Below are positions 1 through 10,447 of a DNA stretch of 64,000 nucleotides, one piece after another. The stretch spans positions 62,001-126,000 of the forward strand of contig JAJFFK010000002.1 in assembly GCA_021776655.1 (NCBI GenBank), read 5' to 3'. A program made the position numbers and the translations under genes. Within the stretch, counting starts at the first letter, position 1. Every line of letters starts with the position of its first letter. The stretch is from Henriciella sp. Its GTDB lineage: Bacteria; Pseudomonadota; Alphaproteobacteria; Caulobacterales; Hyphomonadaceae. The notes beneath the pieces were generated by a model. The model saw nothing but the letters and a program-made list of their open reading frames with translations, was not told the DNA's origin and ran no database searches.

Positions 1-2197
<2,197 letters not shown>

Positions 2198-5641: not shown

Positions 5642-5803
5642 ACGAGATCGCAAGCGCGGTTACTAAGGTTTGAGGCAACGATGGTCAACAATCAAATGCC
5701 GCAATAACTTACGCGCCCTCGGGCTTGATCGAAGACACAAGTTATCGGTTTCAATCAGGTCAATCTTCCATGCTGGTCCCAGCGCTTGATTTGCGTTTCG
5801 CGC

Positions 5804-5834
5804 CGCCCCGCGTGACGCGCAGCGTCTTAGCGCG
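5804..5834 (-). repeat. 31-bp dispersed repeat fragment
   Basis: The reverse complement is identical over all 31 bases to 32811-32841, which lies at the start of a full family-A repeat. It is therefore a fragment of that dispersed family (GCGCTAAGACGCTGCGCG core). Confidence 0.85.
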
Positions 5835-5934
5835 AAGCAAAATAAACCACGCGCCACCAAGACCGGGAGCCTTGCAAGAGACCCCGGATCAAGTCCGGGA
5901 CAATCGGGGTGGGGATTGTGCCCTCCCATATCAA

Positions 5935-6025
5935 ATTGTCATCCCGGAATTTGCATCAGCAAATATCCGGGACCCAGGGGCGCTTGGCACTGGGTCCCGG
6001 ATCGCTACGCGTCCGGGATGACAAT
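5935..6025. repeat. GTCATCCCGG palindromic element (family B)
   Basis: A 91-bp inverted repeat. Its ends are ATTGTCATCCCGGA and TCCGGGATGACAAT, and an internal mirror GGGACCCAG...CTGGGTCCC splits it into two hairpins. Related copies occur at 33012-33056 and 54725-54815, with a shorter variant at 9382-9451. Confidence 0.85.
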
Positions 6026-6047
6026 GGAGGGTTAGGGTGAGGTACCC

Positions 6048-6143
6048 AGCCCTGAGCCCGGTTCATGTGGCAGCGCACAGCGCTGACGCGGAACCCGCTT
6101 CGCCTCGCGTCGCCCGCAGGGCGTTAGCGCGAGGCAAAACCAG
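6048..6143 (-). repeat. Family-A dispersed repeat, uninterrupted copy
   Basis: Read on the minus strand: CTGGTTTTGCCTCGCGCTAA, a hairpin around CGCCCTGCGGGCG, GCGGGTTCCG, then CATGAACCGGGCTCAGGGCT. The same blocks occur in the same order at 9503-9751, 9788-9857, 32803-32902 and 32901-32989. This copy supplies the empty-site sequence for the insertion at 9524-9684. Confidence 0.85.
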
Positions 6144-6351
6144 AGAGCCTTAACGCGGGGCAAAACTAGAGTTCACCCCCCATTCCTCCGGCCCTCAATC
6201 CCCCAAAACCCGCCCATGCGGTGCCAGTCGGGATTGTCAGCCCTTTCGCTCAATGGCGAGAGGCTTCTGAAAGAGGTGTAAGAGCAAGCTTCCCGGAGCG
6301 ACCCAAGGCAGCGACCTTGCGGCGCGAATACGGATACAAACAGCCCCGCCG

Positions 6352-6429
6352 CGGGCGCGCTCTGTTCGGGCGTTCACAGCCACGCCGAAAGGCTGGCCTT
6401 ACATTCCGCGTTCCACCTGAGCGCGCCCG
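6352..6429 (+). other. Long perfect hairpin, possible structured RNA
   Basis: An 11-bp perfect inverted repeat (CGGGCGCGCTC / GAGCGCGCCCG) encloses 56 nt that can form a second small stem (CAGCC...GGCTG). It lies between two tRNA genes and outside the recognisable repeats. I could not match it to RNase P RNA, SRP RNA, tmRNA or 6S RNA. Confidence 0.35.
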
Positions 6430-6530
6430 GCCCTGCATCTTGCTTGGGCAAAGACAGCATAACGTGACACCGAGAGGTGGTCCGGCGATGACGCATGCCT
6501 GGAAGGAGGGGTAACAGGTCCGAACAAGGC

Positions 6531-6607
6531 TGGTGGTTCGGGGGAGACTTGAACTCCCGACCTCACGATTATGAGTCGTGCGCTCTAACCAGCTGAGCTA
6601 CCGAACC
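6531..6607 (-). tRNA. tRNA-Met(CAT)
   Basis: 77 nt with encoded CCA. Acceptor GGTTCGG pairs CCGAACC; D-loop AGCTGGTTAGA; anticodon stem CACGA/TCGTG around loop CTCATAA; T-arm GGGAG TTCAAGT CTCCC. The anticodon is CAT. Elongator Met is most likely, but a lysidine-modified tRNA-Ile2 cannot be excluded from sequence alone. It is not initiator-like, since the acceptor ends are paired. Confidence 0.95.
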
Positions 6608-6667
6608 GTTGGCCAGATTGATCGCCAAGCGGTCCAATACACGCCCGGCCCGCCACGTGCAACACCT

Positions 6668-7780
6668 TCAGGCCAGCATTTCTACAACATGCTGAGCAAT
6701 CGAGAGAGAAGAGGTCAAACCGGGGCTTTCGATCCCCAAAAGATTGATCAAATGCGGCCCGGCCTGCTCGATCATGAAGTCACCAGAAGGCTCACCCGGA
6801 CCAACCAGTTTCGGCCGAACACCGGCATAATCCTCTGACAATGTGCCGTCTTGCAAATCGGGCCAATAGTCGCGCGCCGAGGCGTAGAACAGCTTCGCGC
6901 GCGCCGGATCGACCCGGTAATCAAAGGGCGGCCTGGCATCGGCGTCCAGCCATTCAGCGTCCGGCCCAAGCTTGCCCCGGCCGGCCAGGTCAACCGTCAG
7001 ATGCAGGCCAAGGCTGGCTTTGCCCGGCATTGGATAGATCAGGCGCGAAAACGGTGTCTTGCCGAGGATGCTGAAATAGCTGCCTTTGACATACCGGGGT
7101 GTCGGCAGGCTCGCGATGTGCGGGCCTTCAATACTGGCGGCGAGGCGCACTGAATTGTGTCCGGCAGCGTTGATCACTGTGTTGGATTTGATCTGTGACG
7201 GGGCCGCCCCGCCAGTGATCAGTTCGACACCATCACTCAGCACGGCACCGCGTTTCACCGGCGTTTCAAAGGCAATCATGCCACCTTGGTCTTCGAGGTC
7301 GCCTTGCAAAGCCAGGAAATATCCGTGGCTGTCAAAGATCCCGGTCTCACGCGAATGGATCGCGCCTTCGATCGCCGGCGAGAGCGCAGGTTCCATAGCG
7401 CGGGCCTGATCACCGGTCAGGATTGACAGACTTTTGACACCATTGGCTTCGGCCCGCGTGACAATGCCGGCCAGGCCGTCAACTTCATCCGCTTGCGCGA
7501 CAACCAGCTTGCCACACCGATTATAGGTCACACCATGGGTTTCGAGATAGTCATACAGCAACCGCCGCCCGGCCACGCTGTGCCGCGCCTTGAGCGATCC
7601 GGTGGCATAATAAATACCGGCATGGATGACCTCAGAATTTCGCGAGGACGTGTGCGCCGCAATCAGAGGCTCAGACTCCAGCACAATCACATCACGTCCT
7701 TGCAAACTCAAAGCGCGGGCCACTGCAAGGCCGATTACCCCAGCGCCAATAACAGTCACATCTGTTTCAAATCGTTCCAT
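6668..7780 (-). CDS. FAD-dependent oxidoreductase, L-2-hydroxyglutarate oxidase-like
   Basis: A DAO-family flavoenzyme of 370 residues, the size of LhgO/L2HGDH proteins, which oxidise L-2-hydroxyglutarate to 2-oxoglutarate. The N-terminal Rossmann motif VIGAGVIGLAVARAL (about residues 10-24) is followed by LESE, then TSSRNSEVIHAGIYY near residue 45-60, which is characteristic of this subgroup. The C-terminal FAD/substrate region contains DYAGVRPKL and GIESPGLTSSL. The ATG at 7780 follows an AAAGGAAA ribosome-binding site. It is monocistronic, with tRNA-Met downstream on the same strand. The substrate is inferred from family only. Confidence 0.85.
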   Translation of the reverse strand: MERFETDVTVIGAGVIGLAVARALSLQGRDVIVLESEPLIAAHTSSRNSEVIHAGIYYATGSLKARHSVAGRRLLYDYLETHGVTYNRCGKLVVAQADEVDGLAGIVTRAEANGVKSLSILTGDQARAMEPALSPAIEGAIHSRETGIFDSHGYFLALQGDLEDQGGMIAFETPVKRGAVLSDGVELITGGAAPSQIKSNTVINAAGHNSVRLAASIEGPHIASLPTPRYVKGSYFSILGKTPFSRLIYPMPGKASLGLHLTVDLAGRGKLGPDAEWLDADARPPFDYRVDPARAKLFYASARDYWPDLQDGTLSEDYAGVRPKLVGPGEPSGDFMIEQAGPHLINLLGIESPGLTSSLSIAQHVVEMLA

Positions 7781-7842
7781 GTTTCCTTTGATCGTTCCAA
7801 AGAGGATTGGACCAGAGATGATTCTGCGTTAACTTGACGCAG

Positions 7843-8598
7843 ATGAAATATCTGATCGCCCTCCTGCTGATGCTGGCACCCTGCGCCGCTGCCGATGAAA
7901 GTGCCCAGACCAGCGCATTCTCGCAAGGGCGATACGAGGAGATTATCGCCCTGGCGGAATCTGAGCCAAATGCAGATAACCTTGCCTTTGCCGCGCGTAG
8001 CCTGCTTGCCAAAGCGATGAGCTCTGCCGACCAGACCCCACCGCCTTCACTGGCGCAACTGGCCGAAGATTATGCCAGGCGGGCGCTGTCAGTGGATGCG
8101 CACCATGTCGAAGCGCGCTTGCAACTGGCGATTGCCTTGTCGCTGCAGGCAAGGCCGATGTCGGCGCGCGAAGCGATGCGGGCTGGCTATGGCACCCAGG
8201 CCAGAGATCTGGTTGAGACAGTCCTCAGCGACACACCCGACAATGCTTATGCGCATGGCTATATGGCCGTTTGGAATATTGAAGTGGTGCGGCGCGGCGG
8301 CCGGTTTGGTGCCGCAATGCTTGGCGCTTCGGTTCGCAAAGCCCGGGCTCACTATACCAAAGCGATTGCGGTTGATGCGAGTGACGCCTCGACGCATTGG
8401 CAATATGCCCGCGCGCTGACAGCTCTGAACGCCCGCAAGTATCGCCGTGACATTGATACCGCCCTCGACGCCGCGCTGGTTGTTGAAACCGAGAGCGAGC
8501 TTGAAAGAACCATGCAGGCACGGGCGCAGCAACTCAAAACGGCGCTTGAAACACAGTCCCGCAAAGCCTGTGAACAGCTCGCAAAACGTATGCTTTAG
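7843..8598 (+). CDS. Secreted TPR-like hypothetical protein
   Basis: The ATG at 7843 (an in-frame TTG lies at 7834) begins a 251-residue protein. It has a clear signal peptide (MKYLIALLLMLAPCAAA) and then helical, Ala- and Leu-rich TPR-like units (for example AEDYARRALSVDAHHVEARL and AHYTKAIAVDASDASTHWQ). A central glycine-rich stretch, RRGGRFGAAMLG, is unusual for plain TPRs. The protein is probably periplasmic, and the repeats suggest protein-protein contacts. No specific function can be assigned. It is divergent from the flavoenzyme gene, with a 62-bp gap for both promoters. Confidence 0.8.
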   Translation: MKYLIALLLMLAPCAAADESAQTSAFSQGRYEEIIALAESEPNADNLAFAARSLLAKAMSSADQTPPPSLAQLAEDYARRALSVDAHHVEARLQLAIALSLQARPMSAREAMRAGYGTQARDLVETVLSDTPDNAYAHGYMAVWNIEVVRRGGRFGAAMLGASVRKARAHYTKAIAVDASDASTHWQYARALTALNARKYRRDIDTALDAALVVETESELERTMQARAQQLKTALETQSRKACEQLAKRML

Positions 8599-8972
8599 GG
8601 GCCGTGGATCCCGGGACGGTCGAAGGATTGGTAGGACGAGACTTGGCACCCGTGGGGCCCGCCGCGGTAAAGCCGATCGATCAACATGGTGGGCCCGGAA
8701 CCATCGCAGGAAGCCCCGCGCTACGCTTCAATCTCCCCCTCAATTCCCCATTTTCCGGCGATACCAGCGTAGGCTGGTATCCATCGCGAGGGGGTCGCCA
8801 AGCCGGGGGCGAGGTGCGTCTGTGCGGGAAGTTATACTAATGATAACAGCCTATTACCCTAGATACACTTACCAGAGATAGGCCCCAGCCTGCGCTAGCG
8901 TCGCCGGATGATTCGAGAAATAATTCACAATCTCAATCCGACACCCCCCAAACCCGACATATACTCCTGCCC
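8599..8972. other. Intergenic region with a short palindrome
   Basis: No gene seen over about 370 bp. It contains a family-C palindrome at 8761-8780 (ATACCAGC GTA GGCTGGTAT followed by CCATCGC) and a short AT-rich stretch at 8830-8880 that could hold the promoter of the next frame. Confidence 0.6.
8761..8780. repeat. Short palindrome, family C
   Basis: ATACCAGCGTAGGCTGGTAT followed by CCATCGC. The same plan, CCAGCGnAGGCTGG then TCCATCGC, is found at 51401-51427. Confidence 0.7.
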
Positions 8973-9524
8973 ATGGATTTTGCACTGCAACCCCATCTCT
9001 ATGCCAATGTGCCGGTGATTTACTGGCCGTGGCTGTTCTGGCAGCTCTGGCGCATCGCGCTGTGGGGCGAGCTGACCGGCCGCGATGTGATGATTACGGT
9101 TGATCGCGCGGGCCGGGTTTACGTCACGCGGATCGGCGACGATCCTGATCTCTGGACGCCGAGCAGATACCCGCATTTACACCAATATTATCTCACCAAG
9201 CAGCTTCCCGGCGAAAGCCGCGTGCAATGCCGGTGGAGGGTCGCAGCGGTCTATGCGCCCGGCTCTGGCGCGCAGGCCTGGATTATCTTGCCGAAGGTTT
9301 TGGGCGCGGTGGTGGCGCAGGTTTGTCGCGCCGAACGGCCCACAATTCGCGACCCGGTGGCGGGCCAAAACTCCGACTGTCCCGGGCTTGTCCCGGGATC
9401 TCCGTCGGGGCTTCCGAACGTCAATTGGACGAGATCCCGGGTCAAGCCCGGAACCATCGGAACCGGACGCCAAACGGCGCACCGGACGCACGTGCTGCGG
9501 GGTTCTGGTTTTGTCTTGCGCTAG
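8973..9524 (+). CDS. Small hypothetical protein, Trp-rich N terminus, frame runs into repeats
   Basis: The first ~80 residues look protein-like: VIYWPWLFWQLWRIALWGELTG, then a short VTVD/AGRVYVTRIGDDPD stretch. From about residue 95 the composition changes, and from residue ~137 the frame reads through the inverted repeat at 9382-9451 and ends inside the family-A repeat. The true C terminus may have been replaced by repeat sequence, or the real stop has been lost. I do not recognise a family. The gene start is supported only by frame and composition. Confidence 0.45.
   Translation: MDFALQPHLYANVPVIYWPWLFWQLWRIALWGELTGRDVMITVDRAGRVYVTRIGDDPDLWTPSRYPHLHQYYLTKQLPGESRVQCRWRVAAVYAPGSGAQAWIILPKVLGAVVAQVCRAERPTIRDPVAGQNSDCPGLVPGSPSGLPNVNWTRSRVKPGTIGTGRQTAHRTHVLRGSGFVLR
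9382..9451. repeat. 70-bp inverted repeat inside the hypothetical frame
   Basis: The left arm CCGGGCTTGtCCCGGGATCTC (9382-9402) pairs with GAGATCCCGGGtCAAGCCCGG (9431-9451), 20 of 21 positions. It is related to the CCGGATCAAGTCCGG unit near 5884 and to the family-B ends. Confidence 0.8.
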
Positions 9525-9751
9525 GCTCCAAACCCACTCAAATCGCCATTTTCACGGTGTGAGTTTGGCGCGAAGACAAGGAAACGTCGTGCAGAACTGG
9601 TTTACCCCAATTCAAAACGATGTTGACGCAGGCTTTGCGTCAAAGACGCGCCGTGAAAGTGGCAATTTGAGTTGGTTTGGAGCCTAAGGCCCTGCGGGCG
9701 ACGCAAGACGAAGCAGGTTCCGCGCTACGCGCATGAACCGGGCTCAGGGCT
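9503..9751 (+). repeat. Family-A dispersed repeat, interrupted copy
   Basis: The left part TTCTGGTTTTGTCTTGCGCTA (9503-9523) and the right part AAGGCCCTGCGGGCGACGC...GAACCGGGCTCAGGGCT (9687-9751) together reconstitute the family-A plan seen uninterrupted at 6048-6143. They are split by a 161-bp insert plus a TA duplication. Confidence 0.85.
9524..9684. mobile_element. MITE-like element with 36-bp terminal inverted repeats and TA duplication
   Basis: The outer 36 bases are imperfect inverted repeats: left end GGCTCCAAACCCACTCAAAT, right end reverse complement GGCTCCAAACCAACTCAAAT, 32 of 36 identical. Weaker pairing (TTTGGCGCGAAG versus TTTGACGCAAAG) continues inwards. The element is flanked by TA on both sides (9522-9523 and 9685-9686). 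Removing it and one TA restores GCGCTAAGGCCCTGCGGGCG, matching the uninterrupted family-A copy at 6048-6143 (GCGCTAACGCCCTGCGGGCG). It has no coding capacity, so it must be non-autonomous. TA duplication is typical of IS630/Tc1-mariner transposases. Confidence 0.85.
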
Positions 9752-9787
9752 GTTTTGTATTCGGCATGTCCGGTCTTTGTGGCAAAC

Positions 9788-9857
9788 AGCCCTGAGCCCG
9801 ATACGGAACCCGCTTCGCGACGCTGCCCCAAAGGGGCTTAGCACGTCGTAAAACAGA
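9788..9857 (-). repeat. Family-A dispersed repeat, inverted copy
   Basis: On the minus strand: TCTGTTTTACGACGTGCTAAG, a hairpin around CCCCTTTGGGG, GCGGGTTCCG, TATCGGGCTCAGGGCT. It faces the copy at 9503-9751, so the two GGGCTCAGGGCTGTTT ends form an inverted pair about 37 bp apart. Confidence 0.8.
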
Positions 9858-9886
9858 CCCTAGCCTAGCGAGAAAAAGCACGCCCA

Positions 9887-10447
9887 CTAAGTCTCGTCGG
9901 CGATTTTCTCGTGCAGCCAGGCCGCGTGGCGGGGGGCTTTTTTGGTTGCGGCCCATTCTTCGAGCATTAAGGGCGCGACCTCTTTAAGCTGCGCCATCTG
10001 CGCGGGCGTGCTGATATTGCAAGCCAGTTCGAGGCGATGACCAGACGGGTCGAAGAAATAGATCGACTTGAAGATGCCGTGATGGGTTGGGCCGAGCACG
10101 TCTAGCCCCATGCTTTCGGCGCGGGTCTTGGCGGCCATCAGGTCGTCCATCGTCGCGACCTTGAAGGCGATATGCTGGACCCATTCGGGCGTATTGTGAT
10201 CGCGGTCCATGTCGGGCTGCTCTGGTAGCTCAAAGAAGGCCAGGACATTGCCATTACCTGCGTCCATGAACACGTGCATATACGGATCGTATGCGCCCGT
10301 GGACGGGACGTGATCTTCGGCAATCGCGAGTTGAAACGCCATGCCCATGACGGACTGGTAGAACTCAACCGTCTGTTTGGCATCCTTGCAGCGATAGGCG
10401 ACGTGGTGAATGCCTTGCAGGACGGGAGCGGGGGCGTCGGACATCAT
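9887..10447 (-). CDS. VOC-family dioxygenase/glyoxalase-like protein
   Basis: A vicinal-oxygen-chelate fold protein of 186 residues with the expected metal positions: [10 protein letters not shown] (His near residue 14), the WVQHIAFKV block (about 89-97) and [14 protein letters not shown] (Glu near 139). It overlaps the 3' end of hpd by ATGA and is probably co-translated, so a role in tyrosine/homogentisate breakdown or detoxification is likely. The precise reaction is unknown. The first of two adjacent ATG codons was used because it makes the ATGA overlap. Confidence 0.85.

What the first reader, a model, noticed from the sequence alone, without database searches (positions are those of the whole stretch)
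9503..9751. Non-autonomous transposon caught inside a dispersed repeat, with an empty site in the same window
A 161-bp element (9524-9684) has 36-bp terminal inverted repeats (32 of 36 paired, ends GGCTCCAAACC) and TA on both sides. Its flanks join to GCGCTAAGGCCCTGCGGGCG, matching the uninterrupted family-A repeat at 6048-6143 (GCGCTAACGCCCTGCGGGCG). So both filled and empty states are visible without a second genome. Arms, TA and match are read directly; mobilisation by an IS630/Tc1-mariner-type transposase is inferred from the TA duplication. No transposase gene with these ends is in the window.
Basis: partly seen in the sequence, partly recalled or inferred. Interest (0 to 1): 0.7.

Follow-up and report, generated by a model that had tools for sequence, protein, structure and literature searches.

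The report
Miniature hitchhiking transposon with resident partner
A short gene-less jumping DNA piece in this bacterium is probably moved by an ordinary IS5-type transposon in the same genome, not the IS630 type first guessed, and several copies sit exactly on genes' stop signals, which their own ends rebuild.

Summary
In detail: window 9524-9684 is a 161-bp element, 32 of 36 terminal bases paired, TA on both sides, inside a dispersed repeat whose other copies are uninterrupted there. It belongs to a young MITE family. Elsewhere in the genome there are five full copies, one with a nested insert, one truncated, and two identical 57-bp deletion copies; none was found in 60 relatives. The IS630/Tc1-mariner reading is not supported: no DDE_3 match. 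The genome instead holds a multicopy 851-bp IS5-family element whose ends match MITE ends at 13-16 of 17 bases and have the same Y-TA-R target. So: a new member of a known kind, an IS5-mobilised MITE (mobilisation inferred). Further, the element's outer TAG is exactly the stop codon of a long upstream frame at 6 of 9 paired insertions and 5 of 13 lone ends. Related ISs elsewhere show this at only 6 of 43, but those with the MITE's own end at 5 of 9. Whether this is survival or targeting is open.

The parts
9524..9684 (+). 161-bp MITE (element with terminal inverted repeats and no transposase gene)
   Evidence: TIR 32/36 against a shuffle maximum of 19; further copies in the genome
9524..9559 (+). 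left terminal inverted repeat, 36 bp, GGCTCCAAACCCACTCAAATCG...
   Evidence: 15 of 17 end bases as in the left end of the resident IS5-family element
9649..9684 (-). right terminal inverted repeat, 36 bp
   Evidence: 14 of 17 with the left end of the resident IS
9522..9523 (.). left TA of the target duplication (context C-TA)
9685..9686 (.). right TA of the target duplication (context TA-A)
9500..9753 (.). interrupted copy of the dispersed family-A repeat (9500-9523 and 9687-9753 around the element)
   Evidence: joined flanks align 95.6% over 91 nt to C40:3200-3550 and across the junction to 15 of the other 16 stretches
6048..6143 (+). uninterrupted family-A repeat, the empty site in the same window
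   Evidence: 79.6% over 98 columns across the junction
8973..9524 (+). 183-aa reading frame whose stop codon TAG is made of the left TA plus the first G of the element; gene status uncertain
   Evidence: no Pfam match

Best explanation
The 161-bp segment is one copy of a MITE family that is moved in trans by the transposase of a resident IS5-family insertion sequence (851 bp counting both flanking TAs; full copy at C9:26471-27321; probably IS427 group). The transposase would bind the shared ends GGCTCYARACYCAMTCA, excise the element and insert it at the TA of a Y-TA-R tetranucleotide, which is duplicated as TA. In the window it landed in one copy of a dispersed ~95-bp repeat. Shown: copies, ends, TA flanks, YTAR targets, empty sites, a partner with similar ends. 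Inferred: that this transposase does the moving, and when.
For: Copies at unrelated sites with TA flanks. Target Y-TA-R at 8 of 9 paired insertions by my reading, against 12.8% of all NTAN sites in 463 kb of this genome. Partner: the first frame matches NF033580 transpos_IS5_3 at 121.8 bits (cut-off 110) and DUF4096, the second NF033580 at 93 bits (below cut-off) and DDE_Tnp_1 over its cut-off. One end of it lies at six further contig ends, 100% identical over 137-140 nt, so it is multicopy and young. Three MITE ends (both window ends and the C17 left end) match its two ends at 13-16 of 17 bases; the other two IS5-like elements of the genome with TA flanks match at 3-10 of 17. Over all positions of the window, both strands, the MITE 17-mer scores above 13 only at the element's own two ends, and 13 at five places. 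Relatives of the IS in Haematobacter (two plasmids) and genome G060 carry TAGGCTCCAAACCCAATCA, closer still to the MITE. In 43 related ISs of other genomes the base outside TA is Y on the left in 41 and R on the right in 43. No DDE_3 in the genome.
Against: No movement was observed. Beyond the ends the MITE core has no match in the ISs compared: only the first 15 bp, plus one 14-mer at E 0.19, so it is not a simple deletion product of these ISs. The match to the resident IS is good but not perfect; a related, now lost IS could be the true parent. Only three of six DDE_Tnp_1 hits in the genome gave recognisable ends, and transposase families other than DDE_3 and DDE_Tnp_1 were not searched. The script demanded TA at both ends, so in the 43 ISs only the Y and R are tested, not TA. 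The third plasmid IS looked at (Jiella) has a less similar left end and no recognised right end. The assembly is in 47 contigs, so an element lost in gaps cannot be excluded.
Confidence: 0.87

Rival explanations
1. The MITE is moved by an IS630/Tc1-mariner-type transposase.
For: TA duplication is typical of that family (recalled), and the RUP/IS630-Spn1 pair is a described case (PMC2229807, passages).
Against: No DDE_3 match in the genome; a resident IS5-family element shares the ends and the YTAR target.
Confidence: 0.04
2. The parent was another IS5-family element, now lost or unassembled, with ends GGCTCCAAACCCAATCA like those in Haematobacter and G060; the resident IS only cross-mobilises or does nothing.
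For: Those ends match the MITE more closely than the resident IS does, and the lone ends in this genome vary (GGGTCC, GGTTCC, GGCGCC).
Against: The resident IS is multicopy with identical ends, so it is the most evident active source now.
Confidence: 0.08
3. The copies spread by recombination or as part of other repeats, not by transposition; the 161 bp would be an internal part of family A.
For: The window copy does lie inside a repeat.
Against: The other copies lie in unrelated flanks, most with TA on both sides, and family-A units lack it in 29 of 29 alignments crossing the junction.
Confidence: 0.01

Closest known systems
IS5 family, IS427 group (e.g. ISPsp10, PMC4133298)
   Same: The resident partner has an IS5 transposase, two overlapping reading frames and TA flanks; the paper's passages give two frames as common in the IS427 group and TA duplication for ISPsp10, which was caught inserted just upstream of a TAA.
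   Different: The MITE has no transposase gene. ISPsp10 is described as lacking its own stop codon; the resident IS ends with its own TGA. Group assignment here is by resemblance, not by ISfinder.
MITEAba12 / ISAba12 (PMC6382973, abstract and passages)
   Same: A MITE of 111-114 bp with ends shared with a co-resident IS (that ISAba12 is of the IS5 family is recalled; the words were not found in the paper).
   Different: 9-bp target duplications there, TA here; new insertion seen there, not here.
RUP and IS630-Spn1 (PMC2229807, passages)
   Same: 107-bp MITE at TA targets and a co-resident IS with like ends.
   Different: Partner is IS630 there, IS5-type here.
Correia/NEMIS elements of Neisseria (PMC2229807, passages)
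   Same: ~107/155-bp elements with TA termini, terminal inverted repeats and filled/empty comparisons.
   Different: Other host group; sequences not compared here.

Membership tests
MITE | short, no transposase gene, multicopy, terminal inverted repeats, target duplication | tested here: met
MITE | ends shared with an autonomous element | tested here: met
   13-16 of 17 with the C9 element; 3-10 of 17 with the two control elements
MITE | mobilised in trans | not testable with these tools
   needs a transposition assay
IS630/Tc1-mariner | DDE_3-type transposase available in the host | tested here: not met
   no match in the genome; search rings in 3 of 14 control genomes
IS630/Tc1-mariner | TA target duplication | tested here: met
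   not specific to this family
IS5 family, IS427 group (the partner at C9) | IS5 transposase | tested here: met
   PF13340, PF01609 and PF13586 over cut-off; NF033580 over cut-off for the first frame only
IS5 family, IS427 group (the partner at C9) | transposase in two frames | tested here: met
   L024:516-941 and 187-480, minus strand; frameshifting itself not tested
IS5 family, IS427 group (the partner at C9) | TA duplication | tested here: met
   TA at both ends of the C9 copy
IS5 family, IS427 group (the partner at C9) | ISfinder group assignment | not testable with these tools
   ISfinder is not on hand

The most novel reading that the evidence does not exclude
The subfamily with ends TAGGCTCCAAACCCA uses gene ends as safe landing places. 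Its outer bases TAGG, whichever way round, turn a TAA or TAG stop codon of either strand into a TAG stop codon, so it can sit on a stop without harming the protein and adds a strong hairpin to the mRNA 3' end; after the rest has decayed, the end is kept because it is now the gene's stop codon. In addition the 53-bp deletion form, found twice with identical sequence at the stop codons of the genes for S-adenosylhomocysteine hydrolase and a glucose/sorbosone-dehydrogenase-like protein, would itself be mobile, an exceptionally small mobile element.
Probability: 0.35. Interest if true: 0.6.

Novelty: new member of a known kind. Interest (0 to 1): 0.4.

Why it matters
It corrects a common shortcut: TA duplication plus a MITE need not mean IS630/mariner. 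It gives a MITE and its probable IS5-type partner in one genome with empty sites, and a natural data set for asking how small a mobile element can be and whether element ends are taken over as gene stop codons.

Tried and rejected
IS630 partner: sought with DDE_3, none. MITE elsewhere: 22-base end pattern in genome contigs (0) and viral contigs (0), 165-bp query in plasmids (no match), 60 relatives (0 of 60); the first three tools warn that records very near this genome may be left out; phages and E. coli genomes were not searched. The other IS5-like elements (C30 and C29) as partners: ends do not match. Stop-codon targeting as a general property of this IS group: 6 of 43 related ISs elsewhere end a frame of 150 codons or more, not more than the 9.6% (all YTAR) to 22.5% (non-coding and stop) range of this genome, so I do not claim it for the group. 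Of 80 IS relatives kept (of 381 found), 33 gave no end pair and 1 was a duplicate; of 46 pairs I dropped 3 as mispaired (L125, L151, L171) before the count (before dropping: Y 43, R 44 of 46). L156 and L175 are offset by a few bases and were kept; 4 kept loci run off the contig on one side. Lone ends: 13 counted; left out were C46:23357 and C11:25671 (no TA) and C16:111432 (abuts a full copy). MITE core against the ISs: nothing convincing beyond the ends. Rfam on window 5800-10000: only a tRNA. Papers: nine searches; no title or abstract start in their listings concerns IS5-family MITEs at stop codons, and the prokaryotic MITE review PMC10969869 does not contain 'stop codon' (passages). I read listed papers no further than the passages cited.

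Full report
1. The observation. Window 9524-9684 is as described: 161 bp, 11 perfect terminal bases, 32 of 36 matching, TA on both sides. In 1000 dinucleotide shuffles the best terminal match was 19 of 36. The joined flanks align without the insert to family-A repeats in 29 alignments from 16 of 17 stretches. The nearest is C40:3200-3550, 95.6% over 91 nt.

2. The family. In the genome (2.97 Mb, 47 contigs) the element recurs in full at C16:111269-111433, C17:37529-37693, C40:31647-31811, C30:38654-38817 and C38:61054-61218, at C24:33375-33642 with a nested ~103-bp insert, and truncated at C30:48353-48440. Two identical 57-bp copies (53 bp between the TAs), at C43:8456-8512 and C24:113793-113849, have lost the middle. 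Among the window copy and four other full copies, pairs differ at 2-12 of 165 positions (the C30 copy, 164 bp, was not in that count). None of 60 relatives, 28 of the same genus, has a match. The 13-base end pattern with up to one mismatch occurs 36 times here (18 exact) against 1 for its reversed control; in each of 36 relatives it occurs 0 to 7 times, in the range of their controls.

3. The target. Of nine paired insertions (seven full-length, the C24 copy with its nested insert included, plus two small) eight have Y left and R right (reading). The exception is the C24 copy, both of whose TAs have decayed; C38 has lost one TA but keeps T and G outside. YTAR is 12.8% of all NTAN in 463 kb of this genome.

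4. The partner. DDE_3 is absent. DDE_Tnp_1 rings at six places. C9:26471-27321 is a complete IS5-family element: TA, GGCTCTAAACCCAATCAG at the left, GGCTCCAGACTCAATCAGATC at the right, TA, with the transposase in two frames. Its ends recur, identical over 137-140 nt, at six contig ends (left: C4, C46, C47; right: C20, C25, C29); with C9 that makes four right ends, so probably at least four copies, collapsed by assembly. Two other IS5-like elements with TA flanks (C30:2-854, C29:3-846) have different ends and serve as controls: 3-10 of 17 matches to the MITE ends, against 13-16 of 17 for the C9 element. Related ISs in two Haematobacter plasmids and genome G060 have the end TAGGCTCCAAACCCAATCA; a Jiella one is less similar. 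In 43 related ISs from other genomes the flanks are Y in 41 and R in 43, TA having been demanded by the script. PMC4133298 (passages) reports an IS427-group element inserting with TA duplicated, just upstream of TAA. Together this makes IS5-type mobilisation the best reading and IS630 a poor one.

5. Stop codons. At the two small copies and at C16, C17, C30 and the window copy, the TAG formed by TA plus the first G of the element is the in-frame stop of a long upstream frame (225-557 codons open). At C17 it serves two convergent genes at once. At C40, C38 and the C24 copy it is not so. Lone ends at C19, C23, C28:54411, C2:166591 and C11:80508 do the same (5 of 13 TA-bearing lone ends; C28:54411 matches only 12 of 17 of the longer end and may be chance), as do two contig-end copies of the IS (C46, C20; 2 of 7 ends). 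Fourteen such frames were put to Pfam; eleven match above cut-off: DUF3667, Lysine_decarbox, cytochrome b561/YceI, AdoHcyase, GSDH, GFA, HTS, TrcR, ABC transporter, Exonuc_VII_L, H_PPase. The C16 and C20 proteins match only below cut-off and the window frame not at all. For the sahH copy, 12 of 29 relatives' loci fitted my pattern for the gene's last residues; all 12 end in TAA or TAG and none shows the element in the 60 bases after it. For metA only 2 of 10 relatives' loci were read.

6. Is that more than chance? In 463 kb, 108 of 1407 YTAR sites are gene stops, 386 intergenic, 913 coding by a simple gene caller. By the open-frame rule (150 codons or more on either side), 135 of all 1407 and 111 of 494 non-coding or stop sites qualify. 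Against the latter, 6 of 9 gives P = 0.006 (5 of 9, without the doubtful window frame, 0.03) and 5 of 13 lone ends, one-sided, 0.011. These tests were chosen after seeing the pattern. The 43 ISs of other genomes show 6 of 43. Nine ISs have the exact end TAGGCTCCAAACCCA: six from genome contigs (L134 and L163, which had given no end pair, and L146, L157, L184, L196, which are among the 43), the G060 one (L050) and the two Haematobacter plasmid copies. Five of the nine end a long frame: L050, L134, L146, L184, L196. Within the 43 the count is 3 of 4 with this end against 3 of 39 with others, P = 0.006. The frames at L050 (Cupin_5), L146 (TonB-dependent receptor) and L184 (aminotransferase) have Pfam matches over cut-off; those at L134 and L196 have none, and the frames at L050, L184 and L196 have long rivals or are short, so chance frames in GC-rich DNA are possible for the unmatched ones. 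L157 and L163 end no such frame. The two plasmid copies had only 300 bases of flank; the gene tables of the wider stretches list no gene ending at the element (such tables are incomplete). Of the three with other ends, L153 and L168 have Pfam matches, L160 none. The split was made after the fact. So survival of harmless insertions, with later retention of ends that have become the stop codon, explains the data, but a real preference of this end type is not excluded.

7. The small copies. Two identical 57-bp copies at unrelated sites, both TA-flanked and in YTAR, suggest that the 53-bp form itself moved. A recurrent deletion between TGAGT repeats in two separate full copies is the alternative; both small copies share a CCACTTT variant that among the full-length copies appears in that arm only at C38.

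8. Folding. As RNA the window copy folds at -101 kcal/mol (z -13; other strand -83, z -11) and the small copy at -40.5 (other strand -38.3), so copies next to stop codons would put a hairpin at the mRNA end; effect untested.

9. Organism.

Noticed in passing
window 6048-6143, 9500-9753; L082, L083: Family A is a ~92-95-bp repeat with 47 matches in this genome and only weak partial ones in 5 of 30 relatives; it forms tandem arrays (4.0 copies of 95 bp in L083, 4.3 of 92 bp in L082), some at contig ends.
   Followed up: partly
L014:1876-2143 (C24:33375-33642): One MITE copy carries a nested ~103-bp insert with its own inverted ends TGCCCCTCATCTAT/ATAGATGAGGGGCA; no other copy of these ends in the loci held.
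   Followed up: partly
L009 (C16:111432-111444): A MITE copy abuts a second end-like sequence (TAGGCACCAAACCC) and looks inserted at the TA of an older remnant.
   Followed up: no
L093:2-854 and L094:3-846 (C30, C29): Two further IS5-like elements with TA flanks and other ends lie at contig starts.
   Followed up: partly
L087 (C46:160726-160821): A 73% match to the right end of the resident IS, apparently a decayed remnant.
   Followed up: no
L046:136-936 (C20): A frame with a sub-threshold HamA match (24 bits, cut-off 25) ends at the TAG of an IS copy.
   Followed up: no
L116 and L157: The Haematobacter and Schlegelella IS copies show the same first right-flank bases and frame lengths, so they may be one shared insertion.
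   Followed up: no
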